Origin: a virus
DNA length: 29,836 nt
Virus record (IMG/VR): IMGVR_UViG_3300048927_000198
Coordinates: 1 to 29,836 of that record
Reading direction: 5' to 3' (one strand)
The notes beneath the pieces are model-generated. The model did no database searches. It was not told the origin of the DNA and saw only the letters and a list, made by a program, of their open reading frames with translations. The stretch's first letter is position 1. The number at the start of each line of letters is the position of its first letter. Positions 19,959-25,453 of this stretch are shown one piece after another. A program made the translations under genes and the position numbers.

Positions 19959-21746
19959 ATGAGCGATAGCTATTCATCGGATGTTACCAAGTCAACTGCA
20001 GGGTCTGAGGCCAGCGATGTAGCAGCATTAGACTCCGCATTTGAATATGGCCAGTACATTGTCGTATCTAGCGACGGGCTTGAACTGATCCTCTACCAGA
20101 AGGACGCATCAGGGAACCCAACAGAGCTTTCCCGCATGCCGACGTCTACGGCAGTTGCTGCAATTTCCAAGCCTCAGCTATTGAATTACTTCCTGGCTGC
20201 TGCGGGAAACAAAGTCGTAACTGGAGGAAGAAACGTTGGCGTGGGTCCAGGCGCTGGGGAGGGGACGTCCTCAGGCAGTCGAAATGTTCTTGCAGGGTAC
20301 AACGCTGGCCGGGACATGGCGGAGGGCAGCGACAACGTCATCATTGGCGATAGCGCGGCTTATCGGGCGCAGGGCGCGCTGAACAACGTAATCGTTGGTT
20401 CCGGTGCAATGTTCTTGAGCAGGTCTGCCTGCTTCTCAAACATCGCCATCGGTCGTAACGCGGCCTACACATACAACGGCAACGAGATCGTTGCAGTTGG
20501 TTCATATGCCCTAAATAGGGCGGTGGGCGGCCCATGCACAGCGGTTGGTACAAACGCAGGTGGAACCACCACCACCGGCTCAAGGCAAACCCTCATTGGG
20601 TACAATGCCCTGGGCGGCGCAGAAAACAATGACGTCATAGCTATTGGTCACGGATCCGAGGCCACCGAGAGCAAGCAGATCGCCCTTGGTACCGGTCTGC
20701 AGGACCACATGAAGGCGTTTGGGATTGATTTTGCCAGGTGGCATTCCGCTGGGTACAACCTGTGGCTCGGCACACGAGGCCCGAAAACGCCGCCAACCGG
20801 CGAGCGAAACCTGGGCATTGGCCGCATGGCCTGTAACAGCGTTACGACCGGTGGTGCCAACATCGGCATTGGTGAATCTGCTCTTGAGCTTCAGCAATCC
20901 CAGTCTTCCAACATCGCGATCGGCGTTGTGGCTGCCCAGATGGGTGTTGACCTGTCCGACTGTACCTATGTTGGAACTCGTGCAGGCCGATACAATGCGA
21001 CCGGGGTGGGGGCAACCGCAATAGGCTTCAGGTCCCTTGAGCAGTGTGTTTCAGCCAACAACAACACAGGACTCGGCGATAGCGCCGGGTGGGTATGCCA
21101 AGGTGCTGGAAACGTCTTCGCTGGCTATGTTGCCGGAGAGTACAAGCGCGACGGCGATGAATGCATTGCCATCGGCAGGGCTGCTGGCAGAAATCGACTA
21201 AACGGCGACAGCTGTGTATTCATTGGTGCTTCCGCAGGATCCATTGCGTCTGGCATCGCGAAAATCAATCAGGCCGACGGCACGGGCGGAACTCCAGCAG
21301 GTGACCGGGTAATTGGCATCGGGTGCAATGCAGTCGACGAGTTTCTCGGCAGTGATGTGATCGCAATCGGTCACAACTCAGGCAGAAGCCTAGTTGCAGG
21401 TGCAAAGCAATCCCTTGGCAGTATCTTTATCGGTAACGCTACTGGCAATCACCCCCTCCAAAAGACAGATGCAGCTAATTGCGTTGCGATCGGCCATGGG
21501 ACTTATAGCGATCGCGACAATCAGGTGATCCTGGGTAACGAGGCGGTCCGCGAGACTGTTTTGAGAGGCGTTACTAAAAACACCGTTTATCTCGTTGGCG
21601 ATCTTCCAGCAGCTGACGCTAGTGGCGCCGGATCCAGGGCATTTGTCTCGGATGCTCAATCAAGCGGGTTCAATTCTGAGGTTTACGGCGGAGGCAGTTC
21701 ATTTACCCCGGTGTTTAGTGACGGCGCTGTTTGGCGCGTAGGGTAA
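19959..21746 (+). CDS. Tail fibre with YadA-like beta-roll repeats
   Basis: A 595-residue protein from ATG 19959 (AGGA three bases before). After a short N-terminal domain (YGQYIVVSSDGLELILYQ), residues about 75-540 hold around 20 copies of a degenerate unit of the form N-x-x-I/V-G-x-x-A-G/A, for example NVIIGDSAAY, NIAIGRNAAY, TLIGYNALGG, VIAIGHGSE, NIGIGESAL and CIAIGRAAG. This is the head repeat of trimeric autotransporter adhesins such as YadA. The end (DLPAADASGAGSRAFVSDAQ...VFSDGAVWRVG) is a tip domain shared by many phage fibres. I infer a trimeric receptor-binding fibre. Spacing between units varies, so the roll may have loops. It is followed by a terminator and a second fibre. Confidence 0.82.
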   Translation: MSDSYSSDVTKSTAGSEASDVAALDSAFEYGQYIVVSSDGLELILYQKDASGNPTELSRMPTSTAVAAISKPQLLNYFLAAAGNKVVTGGRNVGVGPGAGEGTSSGSRNVLAGYNAGRDMAEGSDNVIIGDSAAYRAQGALNNVIVGSGAMFLSRSACFSNIAIGRNAAYTYNGNEIVAVGSYALNRAVGGPCTAVGTNAGGTTTTGSRQTLIGYNALGGAENNDVIAIGHGSEATESKQIALGTGLQDHMKAFGIDFARWHSAGYNLWLGTRGPKTPPTGERNLGIGRMACNSVTTGGANIGIGESALELQQSQSSNIAIGVVAAQMGVDLSDCTYVGTRAGRYNATGVGATAIGFRSLEQCVSANNNTGLGDSAGWVCQGAGNVFAGYVAGEYKRDGDECIAIGRAAGRNRLNGDSCVFIGASAGSIASGIAKINQADGTGGTPAGDRVIGIGCNAVDEFLGSDVIAIGHNSGRSLVAGAKQSLGSIFIGNATGNHPLQKTDAANCVAIGHGTYSDRDNQVILGNEAVRETVLRGVTKNTVYLVGDLPAADASGAGSRAFVSDAQSSGFNSEVYGGGSSFTPVFSDGAVWRVG

Positions 21747-21797
21747 GAAATAGAAACAACCGGATTACGTCAGTCCGGATATCAAGAAACTCACCTG

Positions 21798-21821
21798 AGC
21801 CCGCCTAGTGCGGGCTTTTTT
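21798..21821 (+). terminator. Intrinsic terminator between the two fibre genes
   Basis: A 7-bp stem AGCCCGC/GCGGGCT (21798-21804, 21810-21816), loop CTAGT, with T run 21816-21821. It ends 15 bases before the next start codon, so the second fibre depends on read-through or antitermination. Confidence 0.8.
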
Positions 21822-21836
21822 GTGCCCGGAGAAACT

Positions 21837-23990
21837 ATGCGCTACAACACTGGCAACCCCGTAGGTCCCGATGGTTCGAATTCTCCTTTTGACCTATACG
21901 ACAACTCCGGGATCATTGATCTTCTCTTGACTGGTCCTCTTGGCGAGTACCTGGATCGCCTCGGCGTGCCACTGAAATCGTGGCGCGGGATCATGCAGCA
22001 GGTTACTGACTACCTGATAGATCAAGGCTACGAATCGGTTTACCTGGCATATGGCGCTGGTGTGGTGGTAGAGCGGCAGACTCAGCTTGTTCAGCGCTCT
22101 GGCGAACTTTACCGGGTGATGAATGCATCCGATATTCCGCTTACACTCACCGGCACCTGGGCCACTGATGCACCGAAGCTTCAGGCAGTTGGAGACGCTG
22201 CCCTTAGGCAAGCTCTGGCTAGCGCTTCAGGGACTACCCTGATTGGCCGGGCGGGCGGCACTCTTGAGGCATCCCTTGTCGCGCTTGAGGCGAAAGACGC
22301 AAGCCAGGACGCAAAAGCTCAAGCTAACACCGATGCAATCGCTGGGATTGGCAAGGTGTTCAGCAACGTTCTTGATCCGGCAGTGATCGACCTGCATTTT
22401 GGCCCACTCTGCGGCACCGGTTGGGCTGGGACATCAGAGCCAGGCGGTATCGTTAGCACAACGACCACCGCTTCCGCCGCCCAGAACACGACAGCCCTCC
22501 CTGTGGCGTCAGCAGCCAGTTTTTTTGTCGGTGAGATCATCTGCTGGCTTTCCAGTGATGGGCAATACGACACTGGCGTCATCAAGATCATCGAAGCTGG
22601 CCCGGTCCTGCGGATGGACCGCCAGATGCGTGTGGCTGTGGCGTCCGGCGCCCCGGTGTACAACTTCAACCGGAACGACGCGCACCCAAACACCTACGGT
22701 TACAACGCGATCGCTGACTCGGCCCTACGGCAGCTCACTTCCAAGCGGATATCCATTCTGGAGTACCGAGCCAATGACGGAGCTATCTGGTCACCAATCC
22801 TGAGTGCAACTCTCGTCAGCCAAACCGCATCGGTCTATACCAACCCCGGCGGCGGTCCTGTTGGTGAACGGTCCATCTCTGTGTCCAGTCCCACCGTCAA
22901 TGCCGGTGCATCTTCTTCCTGGGTTGCGCTGACTGGTGGCGACAAGGTGGTTAATTTGGTGCTGAACCCAGGCACCCGCGACCCCGGCAACCTCTCTGGA
23001 ACAGTAGATATTGCTGTTATTGAGAAGACAGCGGATGGAACAGAATTTCAGATTGCTTCAGAAACGGGTATCGCGAGTTATGGAGCGGTTCGTTCTCGTG
23101 ACATCAGCTTCACTATTCGCCCTGGCTCTATGGTGCAGATCAGGGTTACCTCTCCTAATGGTGGGCCATGGACGTTCTACCTGGGCCAGGTCAGTTATTA
23201 CAGCGTGCGCGGATTCCTGGGTTCGCTTAATCGCGGCAAGCATGTACTGCTGGGAGACAGCTGGTTCGCTGGTGGCGATCTCTACAACCGCCTGGTCGCG
23301 CGCCTGCCGAAAGCCACAATCATCAATAAAGGTGTGAGCGGCAACAGGGCATCGGATTTGATCGCCCGATTTGACGCCGACGTGGTACCGCAGGCCCCTG
23401 ATTTCGTCTGGGTCATGATTGGTACAAACGACTATTACGCTGGCATTACTCCGGCATTATTTGAGCAGCAGATCCTTCAGCTCCGTCGAATGATTCAGGC
23501 GCTAGGCGCGCAGCCGATCTTCTTCACAGCCAGCGTTGGTGCAATCGCCCCAACCGGAGGTGGCGGAGACCAGCTGGTGAAGTCGCGTAGCTACGCCCTG
23601 AATGTCCGTTATACCAGCCAGGTCCTGCAGCCTGATGGCGCTGGGACTGTGGCGCGCAGCGCGAACTTCTACGCTCGGGCGACCGTGGCGGCGTCTTCCT
23701 CTCAGATCATCGGCGTGATCCCCGGCATGACCAGGCTGCCAGCGCTGGTAAGATTCCTTCACCAGTCGGTGGCGGGCTTGCAGTTGAGCATCGAGTACTG
23801 TGCTGCAGCAGACGGAACTAGCGCGGTAGACGTTGCAACCTACACCGGGGTCGGGCCGTTCAAGGATCAACCGGCTACGAGGTCGAACACAGAGCTCCGT
23901 TTTGTCGTGCTGCGAGCGACCAACCCGACAGGATCTTCGATTACTGCCTCGATCATTGCCGATATCTGCTGGAACCAGTCGCTGGTGTGA
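21837..23990 (+). CDS. Tail fibre with C-terminal-half SGNH/GDSL hydrolase domain
   Basis: A 717-residue protein from ATG 21837 with GGAGA before it. Residues 1-130 (MRYNTGNPVGPDGSNSPFDLYDNSGIIDLLLTG-type start) form a known phage attachment head. Residues 144-172 are a possible coiled coil, about 180-465 a beta-rich carbohydrate-binding region and about 467-590 the SGNH hydrolase core: HVLLGDSW with S475, NKGVSGN with N503 and GTND at 529-532. The usual late block D-x-x-H is not seen before the fold gives way to a C-terminal beta domain (591-717). Such domains remove O-acetyl groups from surface polysaccharide. Residues 180-590 are paralogous to the next gene. Confidence 0.88.
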   Translation: MRYNTGNPVGPDGSNSPFDLYDNSGIIDLLLTGPLGEYLDRLGVPLKSWRGIMQQVTDYLIDQGYESVYLAYGAGVVVERQTQLVQRSGELYRVMNASDIPLTLTGTWATDAPKLQAVGDAALRQALASASGTTLIGRAGGTLEASLVALEAKDASQDAKAQANTDAIAGIGKVFSNVLDPAVIDLHFGPLCGTGWAGTSEPGGIVSTTTTASAAQNTTALPVASAASFFVGEIICWLSSDGQYDTGVIKIIEAGPVLRMDRQMRVAVASGAPVYNFNRNDAHPNTYGYNAIADSALRQLTSKRISILEYRANDGAIWSPILSATLVSQTASVYTNPGGGPVGERSISVSSPTVNAGASSSWVALTGGDKVVNLVLNPGTRDPGNLSGTVDIAVIEKTADGTEFQIASETGIASYGAVRSRDISFTIRPGSMVQIRVTSPNGGPWTFYLGQVSYYSVRGFLGSLNRGKHVLLGDSWFAGGDLYNRLVARLPKATIINKGVSGNRASDLIARFDADVVPQAPDFVWVMIGTNDYYAGITPALFEQQILQLRRMIQALGAQPIFFTASVGAIAPTGGGGDQLVKSRSYALNVRYTSQVLQPDGAGTVARSANFYARATVAASSSQIIGVIPGMTRLPALVRFLHQSVAGLQLSIEYCAAADGTSAVDVATYTGVGPFKDQPATRSNTELRFVVLRATNPTGSSITASIIADICWNQSLV

Positions 23991-24014
23991 TCTGTATGCA
24001 ACGGAGGCATAAGA

Positions 24015-25412
24015 GTGGCGTGGTGTGAGATAATTCGAGCAAATCATGGATGGATGTATCCTCGAATGCGCTTCACCGCTCTTCTTGCTTCGGTTCTACT
24101 GTTTGCCCAGTCAGTTTTTGCAGAGCCCGAATCTCCACGCACGCCAAGCCCAGCATTCATTGACCTGCATTTCGGTACGCTGTCTGGCGTTGGCTGGTAC
24201 AGCAACGAGCCTGGCGGGGTGGTAGAAGCGGTCTCAACCCAGGCAGTGCCTGCCGGTTCATTCCAGATCACCTTGAACGGCACGAAAGGTTTCAGCCGCG
24301 GCCAGCTCGCCTGCTATCAGGGCGAAGACGACACGCTATATCCCGTTGTGCTCAAGGACGTAGAGCCGGACCGGGTAGTGATCGACAGGCCGCTGCCCAA
24401 GGCCATGCCCGAAGGCGGAAAGCTCTACAACTTCTATAACAATGATGCCCACGCCAACCACTTCGGGTTCGCCTGTGTTGCCGATGATGCTCTGCGGCAG
24501 CTGGCTGCGCGGCCGATGCTGCGCCGGGCCGAGCAGTTCAAAGGCGCATCCGGTTGGGAGGTGATCAATGGGGCGCACTCCGATCCAGTACTGACTGCAG
24601 GGTACCGGGACGTTGGTGATGGTGCAGGTATTGCGATAAGGGTTGGCAATGCCGGCGGCGGCGTGGCTTCGAAGCCTGTTGTCTCGCTCTACGAGAACAT
24701 GGTCACTAACGTGGTTGTGAACCCTGGCAAGCAGGCCGGCAAGCAAGCGGCAACGCTCGATATCGTGGTAACCGAGCTGAAGGCTGACGGGCAGGTAATA
24801 GATGTAGCGAAAACTTCGGTCACCCGAGACGACACCATCGCGTCAGTTGATATCCCATACACGATCACCGCCGGCAGCAAGGTTCGCGTCAAGGTGACGG
24901 TACCGTCATCGACCGAATCGGTGTTCTACCCTGGCTCTATCACCCACTACCATGCGCTTTCGCCAGCCGAGGACATCAACCGTGGCAAGCACGTCTTGTT
25001 CGGCGATAGCTGGTTCGCCTCGGGCGGTGACTTTCACTACCACCTGATCAAGCGTTTGAACAAGGCAACGGTTGTCAGCAAGGGTATCGTTGGTAACCGT
25101 AGTGACCAGCTGGTGGCGCGTTTCTTCAAGGACGTTCCGGCCGAGAAGCCCGATTACGTGTGGATCATGGTCGGGACAAACGACTATTACTACAACACCG
25201 CGAGCTGGCTGTTCCAGGCTCAGGTCACCTACCTGGTGGATTACATCCGTTCGATCGGAGCGAAGCCAATCCTATTTAATCCAACAGTGGGAGCGATCGC
25301 ACCAGGGAATGGTGAAAACCAGCTGATCAAGTCTAGGTCCTATGCACTGAACACTCTGTATGTGCCATCGGTGAGCTTCTTGAGGAGCCCGTTGTTGCAA
25401 GCAGGAAAATAG
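24015..25412 (+). CDS. Secreted SGNH/GDSL hydrolase-like protein, paralogue of the fibre domain
   Basis: A 465-residue protein. The GTG at 24015 has GGAGG eight bases away, while ATGs at 24054 and 24066 are possible shorter starts. From residue 18, MRFTALLASVLLFAQSVFA is a clear Sec signal peptide with cleavage after A36. The mature part repeats the preceding fibre from its residue 180 onward: IDLHFGTLSGVGW, YNFYNNDAHANHFGF, KHVLFGDSW (S332), IVGNRSD (N361), GTND (387-390) and IKSRSYALN. It then stops, without the fibre's last domain and without a phage attachment head. It would therefore be exported to the periplasm or beyond rather than built into virions. As in the fibre, no D-x-x-H block is seen. 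I infer a lysogen-expressed receptor-modifying protein, which is not proven. Confidence 0.85.
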   Translation: MAWCEIIRANHGWMYPRMRFTALLASVLLFAQSVFAEPESPRTPSPAFIDLHFGTLSGVGWYSNEPGGVVEAVSTQAVPAGSFQITLNGTKGFSRGQLACYQGEDDTLYPVVLKDVEPDRVVIDRPLPKAMPEGGKLYNFYNNDAHANHFGFACVADDALRQLAARPMLRRAEQFKGASGWEVINGAHSDPVLTAGYRDVGDGAGIAIRVGNAGGGVASKPVVSLYENMVTNVVVNPGKQAGKQAATLDIVVTELKADGQVIDVAKTSVTRDDTIASVDIPYTITAGSKVRVKVTVPSSTESVFYPGSITHYHALSPAEDINRGKHVLFGDSWFASGGDFHYHLIKRLNKATVVSKGIVGNRSDQLVARFFKDVPAEKPDYVWIMVGTNDYYYNTASWLFQAQVTYLVDYIRSIGAKPILFNPTVGAIAPGNGENQLIKSRSYALNTLYVPSVSFLRSPLLQAGK

Positions 25413-25428
25413 ATAGATCGTCACACAG

Positions 25429-25453
25429 AACCCGCCAACAGGCGGGTTTTTTA
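25429..25453 (+). terminator. Intrinsic terminator before the endolysin gene
   Basis: An 8-bp stem AACCCGCC/GGCGGGTT (25429-25436, 25441-25448), loop AACA, with T run 25447-25452. The endolysin ribosome site GGAGA follows within 10 bases, as at the terminator before the second fibre. Confidence 0.85.

What the first reader, a model, noticed from the sequence alone, without database searches (positions are those of the whole stretch)
21837..25412. Virion fibre hydrolase and a secreted copy of the same domain in tandem
The fibre (residues about 180-590) and the next gene share one architecture: IDLHFG, NDAH, GDSW, G-N-R, GTND and KSRSYALN in the same order. The fibre adds a phage attachment head and an extra C-terminal domain. 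The second protein instead has a Sec signal peptide and no attachment part. SGNH domains on phage tails are known to deacetylate surface polysaccharides. Having one copy on the particle and one exported from the cell suggests a matched pair in which the virion enzyme recognises or opens the receptor and the lysogen-made enzyme removes the same group from the cell's own surface, blocking re-infection or freeing progeny from debris. I know of O-antigen-modifying prophage genes, but not of a paired fibre/secreted paralogue system described as such.
Basis: partly seen in the sequence, partly recalled or inferred. Interest (0 to 1): 0.82.

Follow-up and report, generated by a model that had tools for sequence, protein, structure and literature searches.

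The report
Phage fibre esterase with exported twin
A temperate Pseudomonas phage carries the same sugar-ester-cutting enzyme twice, once on its tail fibre and once as a separate protein made for export from the cell, and the second copy sits where related phages keep genes that alter the bacterial surface, so it probably changes the phage's own docking sugar.

Summary
Fibre 21837-23990 and the next gene (conserved start 24066, stop 25412) share a 417-aa enzyme region at 39% identity, and the second protein has a signal peptide instead of a virion head. It is not a fibre fragment. Nine distinct records carry the tandem, the exported copies form one fully supported clade, dN/dS is about 0.05-0.12, and all catalytic residues are kept. 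Two further phages carry a separate exported-type copy on the opposite strand, one with a Tat-type signal. The gene lies in the slot where D3-type phages keep their serotype-conversion genes. In one case the fibre enzyme and the exported gene sit as one block in two unrelated phage backbones. The enzyme is an SGNH hydrolase with its His block at the N-terminus (H-S-G-N order), fused to a CBM-like beta-sandwich. Best reading: the exported esterase edits the surface glycan that the fibre uses as receptor. Gene order suggests late expression; expression in the lysogen is unproven. A fine-tuned 'matched pair' is not supported: there is no gene conversion, and partners have been reshuffled. Substrate, export and timing are untested. 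I found no description of such a pair in the papers searched.

The parts
21797..21817 (+). Terminator-like hairpin upstream of the fibre gene
   Evidence: same element upstream of all related fibres inspected
21837..23990 (+). Tail fibre gene, 717 aa: D3-type virion head (aa 1-150), linker, permuted SGNH esterase with CBM-like sandwich (aa 181-596), C-terminal region (aa 597-717)
22377..23624 (+). Enzyme region of the fibre: D281-x-H283 (22677-22685), Ser475 (23259-23261), Asn531 (23427-23429)
23625..23987 (+). Fibre-only C-terminal region of 121 aa, absent from the exported copy
24033..24067 (+). Conserved hairpin (7-bp stem ATTCGAG/CTCGAAT) whose 3' foot overlaps the start codon of the exported gene
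   Evidence: all 7 pairs form in 4 distinct versions; 4 of 7 pairs changed on both sides
24066..25412 (+). Exported SGNH esterase, paralogue of the fibre enzyme (conserved start ATG 24066; alternative in-frame GTG 24015 with GGAGG at 24003)
24066..24122 (+). Predicted Sec signal peptide MRFTALLASVLLFAQSVFA
   Evidence: sequence features only; no dedicated predictor run
24444..24452 (+). Block V-like D-A-H of the exported enzyme, N-terminal to Block I
25008..25010 (+). Predicted catalytic Ser of GDSW (Block I) in the exported enzyme
25179..25181 (+). Block III Asn of GTND in the exported enzyme
25427..25450 (+). Terminator-like hairpin behind the exported gene

Best explanation
The tail fibre carries a polysaccharide O-ester hydrolase (most likely a deacetylase) used to recognise or process a surface glycan of the Pseudomonas host. 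The next gene makes a Sec-exported version of the same enzyme without virion parts. It most likely acts on the same class of glycan from inside the cell: on O-units in the periplasm, and on the envelope and debris at lysis. It thereby removes the group the fibre needs, so progeny are not trapped on debris or sister cells, and re-infection may be reduced. In other words, it works like a receptor-destroying or serotype-conversion gene, but uses a copy of the phage's own fibre enzyme. Shown by computation: paralogy, conserved active-site residues, purifying selection, signal-like N-termini, position in the conversion slot, and block transfer with the fibre enzyme. Inferred: deacetylase activity, shared substrate, export, timing, and effect on adsorption.
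For: Shared enzyme region, 39% over 417 aa. Ser, Gly, Gly and Asn invariant in 27 rows; His invariant wherever covered; an acid 2 or 3 residues before it in every covered row. Exported clade of nine is 100/100, dN/dS about 0.05-0.12 where dS is not saturated. Predicted structure of the exported protein (pLDDT 75, pTM 0.72): CBM22/CBM4-like sandwich (Z up to 13.6) and SGNH core (Z about 12), top Foldseek hits CE2 carbohydrate esterases. Slot: D3 has iap, O-antigen acetylase and wzy-beta directly after the homologous fibre; phi297, BUCT566 and Fyn8 have O-antigen polymerase with or without acetylase; L011 and L012 have acyltransferase-3/SGNH, L014 a glycosyltransferase, L013 a lipoprotein-type SGNH hydrolase. 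Block transfer: L003 and L006 share 81% DNA identity exactly over fibre enzyme plus exported gene (L003 4331-7321) and nothing else. A separate exported clade on the opposite strand, Tat-type in L045, in L045 and L043 (one-clade test p-AU 0.036). Literature: SGNH tail proteins are active esterases and G7C gp63.1 is an O-antigen deacetylase (PMC13123978, PMC10743462); the same Klebsiella paper states that D3 acetylation prevents superinfection.
Against: No activity, export or expression data. A Sec signal reaches only the periplasm; access to surface glycan needs periplasmic action, type II secretion or lysis. Same-strand position and lack of a promoter argue against constitutive expression in the lysogen. 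Fibre and exported copies are not co-tuned. SGNH fibres without an exported copy exist: L040, L042, L044, Vibrio phage 1.154.O (all but the last may be fragments), so the copy is optional.
Confidence: 0.58

Rival explanations
1. Lysis helper: the exported SGNH enzyme de-esterifies peptidoglycan in the periplasm so that the endolysin encoded next can cut it.
For: The gene lies directly before the endolysin/Rz genes and is probably co-transcribed late. The review describes an SGNH peptidoglycan esterase with a CBM in the SGNH domain (Neisseria Ape1).
Against: Endolysin class differs between tandem phages (phrog_873 type in the window, GH19 in L001, SleB-type Hydrolase_2 in L006) while the fibre class stays SGNH. 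The closest relatives are fibre enzymes, and relatives with beta-helix fibres lack the gene. From general knowledge, P. aeruginosa-type peptidoglycan is not known to be O-acetylated.
Confidence: 0.12
2. Lysogenic fitness factor unrelated to the receptor: the exported esterase acts on exopolysaccharide (for example alginate), plant polysaccharide or biofilm matrix.
For: CBM22/CBM4-like sandwich and CE2/acetyl-xylan-esterase-like fold. One host is Pseudomonas sp. NFIX28.
Against: Linkage to SGNH fibres, including block transfer with the fibre enzyme, and position in the O-antigen conversion slot of D3-type phages.
Confidence: 0.17
3. The second protein is a virion or cytoplasmic protein whose signal-like N-terminus is not used, or the gene is a decaying duplicate.
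For: One degenerate, internally deleted copy exists in another Pseudomonas genome (G352 contig 43). No secretion experiment.
Against: dN/dS about 0.05-0.12 and intact catalytic residues in all nine; no head or C-terminal fibre region in any; signal-like N-termini in all nine; a Tat-type signal in the other exported lineage.
Confidence: 0.07

Closest known systems
Pseudomonas phage D3 serotype-conversion cassette (iap, oac, wzy-beta)
   Same: Same place in the genome, between a homologous tail fibre and the endolysin; temperate Pseudomonas phage; genes that change O-antigen
   Different: D3 adds acetyl groups and changes polymer linkage; here the gene is an exported hydrolase that is a paralogue of the fibre's own enzyme
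G7C gp63.1 and Klebsiella SGNH receptor-binding proteins
   Same: SGNH esterase on the virion fibre, predicted polysaccharide deacetylase (PMC10743462, PMC13123978)
   Different: No exported paralogue found described there; block order here is permuted. The Klebsiella paper mentions adjacent SGNH proteins only where the RBP itself has no detected domain
AlgJ/AlgX permuted SGNH-like proteins
   Same: H-S-G-N order and D-x-H instead of D-x-x-H (PMC9487903)
   Different: Here canonical GDS and Block III Asn are kept; no Pfam hit to that family; phage-borne with a CBM-like insert
CE2 carbohydrate esterases (CtCE2, CjCE2A)
   Same: Jelly-roll carbohydrate-binding domain before the SGNH core; top Foldseek hits
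   Different: CE2 keeps Block V at the C-terminus; here no conserved His follows Block III and the D-x-H lies before the sandwich
Vibrio phage 1.154.O tail protein (MG592522)
   Same: Only annotated phage record with the same enzyme architecture (31.6% identity, 91% cover); best BFVD hit covers the whole length at TM 0.80 and 28% identity (entry unnamed, probably this or a similar phage)
   Different: Single copy on the fibre, no exported copy in the record

Membership tests
SGNH/GDSL hydrolase superfamily | Block I Ser, Block II Gly, Block III Asn | tested here: met
   Invariant in fibre and exported copies of all 27 rows; Pfam PF13472 above cut-off in both window proteins
SGNH/GDSL hydrolase superfamily | Block V Asp-x-x-His C-terminal to Block III | tested here: not met
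   No conserved His after Block III in any row; a D-x-H-x-N-x-x-G motif lies N-terminal to Block I instead. Read as a circular permutation inside the superfamily, for which AlgJ/AlgX are the precedent
SGNH/GDSL hydrolase superfamily | Alpha/beta/alpha SGNH core fold | tested here: met
   Model residues 305-433 match SGNH enzymes at Z about 11-12, aligning to TesA residues 1-131 of about 178, i.e. without its Block V part
SGNH/GDSL hydrolase superfamily | Esterase activity | not testable with these tools
   Needs purified protein
CE2 carbohydrate esterases | N-terminal jelly-roll CBM plus C-terminal complete SGNH domain | tested here: not met
   Sandwich and SGNH core are in CE2 order but Block V is not C-terminal
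AlgJ/AlgX family | H-S-G-N order with D-x-H | tested here: met
   definition from PMC9487903
AlgJ/AlgX family | Block III Tyr and GTSYS Block I | tested here: not met
   Block I is GDSW and Block III GTND; Pfam returns only GDSL families. Works alike, not a member
Serotype-conversion (O-antigen-modifying) prophage genes | Located in the conversion slot of a temperate phage | tested here: met
   Same slot as D3, phi297, Fyn8 and BUCT566 cassettes
Serotype-conversion (O-antigen-modifying) prophage genes | Changes O-antigen of the lysogen and phage adsorption | not testable with these tools
   Needs lysogens and LPS analysis
SGNH receptor-binding deacetylases (G7C gp63.1 type) | SGNH domain on a virion fibre | tested here: met
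   Fibre head matches tail families and D3-type fibres fused to the SGNH region; presence in virions not tested
SGNH receptor-binding deacetylases (G7C gp63.1 type) | Removes O-acetyl from surface polysaccharide | not testable with these tools
   Needs purified protein and host polysaccharide

The most novel reading that the evidence does not exclude
Temperate phages have repeatedly split their fibre's receptor enzyme into two products, one on the virion and one exported from the infected cell. The exported twin destroys the receptor on the producing cell, as viral receptor-destroying enzymes do. The pair is inherited as one cassette with its own start-site RNA hairpin, and has arisen at least twice (Sec, same strand; Tat, opposite strand).
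Probability: 0.42. Interest if true: 0.8.

Novelty: new variant of a known kind. Interest (0 to 1): 0.62.

Why it matters
Phages that bind surface sugars must avoid sticking to debris of the cell they just lysed and to cells that already carry them. If true, this shows a simple solution: copy the fibre's own enzyme, give it a signal peptide, and keep both as one cassette. The slot and the tandem layout predict which enzyme edits which receptor, so receptor chemistry and superinfection control become testable together in environmental Pseudomonas phages. It also adds a phage family with a permuted H-S-G-N esterase layout.

Tried and rejected
Fibre-fragment or decaying-duplicate reading: rejected by monophyly, purifying selection and intact catalytic residues, although one remnant exists. 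Gene conversion between the copies: none seen, 41.5% within against 41.8% between phages. Strict co-divergence: the Mantel correlation is positive (r 0.69, p 0.0045), but phages L001 and L008/L010 have 99% identical fibres with exported copies about 78% identical, so partners reassort. Hidden second copies in single-copy records: none found (most records may be fragments). Direct detection of Block V by Pfam on the N-terminal piece alone: no hit, so the permutation rests on motif, conservation and absence of any other conserved His C-terminal to Block III; coordinates of the model were not available to measure the active site. Full-length fibre model was poor (pLDDT 57, pTM 0.45) and was not searched. 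Genome surveys in the genus, order and class gave few further hits. Literature searches for a fibre/exported paralogue pair found none; the library lacks most subscription papers, so this is weak evidence of novelty. VIA-align and Foldseek lists do not exclude other fold families.

Full report
WHAT IS THERE. The window is a 29.8-kb virus record with terminase, portal, major head, tape measure and TipJ-like tail genes in order. A fibre gene (21837-23990) is followed after a short gap by a second gene ending at 25412. The two proteins align over 417 aa at 39% identity (E 1e-90) and both hit Pfam GDSL families. The fibre head (aa 1-150) matches phage tail families and the fibres of D3, phi297, PMG1 and other Pseudomonas phages. 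The second protein lacks the head and the 121-aa C-terminal region, and begins with a Sec-type signal.

START SITE. All nine tandem records share the start MRF/MRY/MRP, which is ATG 24066 in the window; GTG 24015 is an extra in-frame option there. A hairpin is conserved at this start. Its 7-bp stem forms in all four distinct versions, with both-sided changes at 4 of 7 pairs, and the start codon sits at the foot of the 3' arm. It may control translation of the exported gene or be a DNA operator; this was not resolved. In the window itself the folding energy is not unusual (z -0.85), in the relatives it is lower than shuffles (z -1.8 to -4.4).

THE ENZYME. GDSW, G-x-x-GNR and GTND are SGNH Blocks I-III. 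Block V is missing from the C-terminus: no His after Block III is conserved in any of 27 sequences. Instead D-A-H-x-N-x-x-G lies about 185 residues before GDSW. This His is invariant wherever covered, and an acid stands 2 or 3 residues before it. A second invariant His (DLHFG) is also N-terminal, so the choice of catalytic His is an inference. This H-S-G-N order with D-x-H is known from AlgJ/AlgX (PMC9487903), but here the canonical Ser and Asn blocks are kept. AlphaFold2 gave a usable model of the exported protein (pLDDT 75, pTM 0.72). Residues 150-297 match CBM22/CBM4-type sandwiches (Z up to 13.6). Residues 305-433 match SGNH enzymes only over the part before their Block V. Residues 50-129 match a small domain of a phage tail-tube protein (Z 12.2). 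The best viral fold match covers the whole length at TM 0.80.

RELATIVES. IMG/VR and genome scans gave nine distinct records with an SGNH fibre followed by the exported copy: the window, L001, L002 (= L005, Pseudomonas sp. NFIX28), L003, L004, L006, L008, L010 and L035 (= genome G352; its fibre ORF is truncated). The exported copies form one 100/100 clade. dN/dS is about 0.05-0.12 where dS is not saturated. Two more records, L045 and L043, carry an exported-type copy on the opposite strand behind the lysis genes; that of L045 starts MDRRTFLL, a Tat-type signal, while that of L043 is cut by the contig end so its signal is unseen. A single origin of both exported types is weakly rejected (p-AU 0.036). 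SGNH fibres without a second copy are L040, L042, L044 and Vibrio phage 1.154.O, and L041, where the fibre is followed by a tRNA-like sequence, probably an attachment site.

THE SLOT. In D3 the homologous fibre is followed by iap, O-antigen acetylase and wzy-beta, then the endolysin. phi297 has wzy-beta there, Fyn8 the D3 set, and BUCT566 an oligosaccharide polymerase. Haboob and PS-1 have nothing or little there. In IMG/VR relatives with beta-helix spikes on the same head, the slot holds acyltransferase-3/SGNH proteins (L011, L012), a glycosyltransferase (L014) or a lipoprotein-type SGNH hydrolase (L013). The exported paralogue is seen only behind SGNH fibres. Contrasting nine SGNH tandems with nine relatives that have other spikes gives Fisher p 4e-5, but the records are related and were not sampled independently, so this number is only illustrative.

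MODULE TRANSFER. L003 and L006 align at 81% DNA identity from L003 4331 to 7321, that is from the start of the fibre enzyme to near the end of the exported gene, and nowhere else. L006 has the D3-type backbone. L003 has a T7-type terminase and matches L041 over 5.6 kb. So fibre enzyme and exported gene travelled together. This is the strongest single hint that they work together.

WHAT SPEAKS AGAINST A FINELY MATCHED PAIR. Fibre and exported copy of one phage are no more alike than those of different phages, and near-identical fibres occur with clearly different exported copies. The two enzymes probably share a substrate class, not co-evolving fine specificity.

MECHANISM AND TIMING. Most likely the exported enzyme removes the O-acyl group that the fibre recognises. 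It would do so on O-units in the periplasm and on the envelope at lysis, limiting wasteful adsorption and perhaps superinfection. Gene order (same strand, short gap, terminator behind, no promoter found) favours late expression. The opposite-strand type in L045 would fit expression in the lysogen. Activity, export and effect on adsorption are not shown. The lysis-helper rival is less likely because endolysin classes differ among the tandem phages.

NOVELTY. SGNH deacetylase fibres and O-antigen-modifying prophage genes are known (PMC10743462, PMC13123978, PMC8787464). An exported paralogue of the fibre enzyme in the conversion slot was not found in the papers searched. I rate it a new variant of a known kind.

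Noticed in passing
24033-24067 and same place in L001, L002, L003, L004, L006, L008, L010, L035: A conserved hairpin with compensatory changes overlaps the start codon of the exported gene; its pattern was found nowhere else in the fetched loci. Possible translational control element or operator.
   Followed up: partly
L013 7994-9415: Behind a beta-helix spike on the same fibre head, a non-permuted SGNH hydrolase with a lipoprotein-type signal (LGACS) fills the conversion slot.
   Followed up: partly
19959-21746; L010 9547-11220; L008 from about 6264; G352 contig 43: A repeat-rich spike-like protein (NVIIGxxAAYRxxGAxNNVI repeats, phrog_4636 tail spike) lies upstream of the fibre in the window but downstream of the exported gene in other phages, so it moves around within this region.
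   Followed up: no
Residues 50-129 of the exported protein model (about 24216-24455): Small beta domain within the N-terminal part resembles a domain of the tail tube of Acinetobacter phage Mystique (PDB 9n71, Z 12.2; weak sequence hit E 0.0019).
   Followed up: no
L029 (G352 contig 43), 9450-9668 minus: Degenerate, internally deleted remnant of the exported gene in a Pseudomonas genome that also has an intact copy.
   Followed up: partly
L035 4714-5958: The fibre ORF of this phage is truncated at its N-terminus while the exported gene is intact.
   Followed up: no
L031 9543-11732 (genome G188): A distant single fibre with the same order of motifs (about 24% identity) on a different head, without a second copy.
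   Followed up: partly
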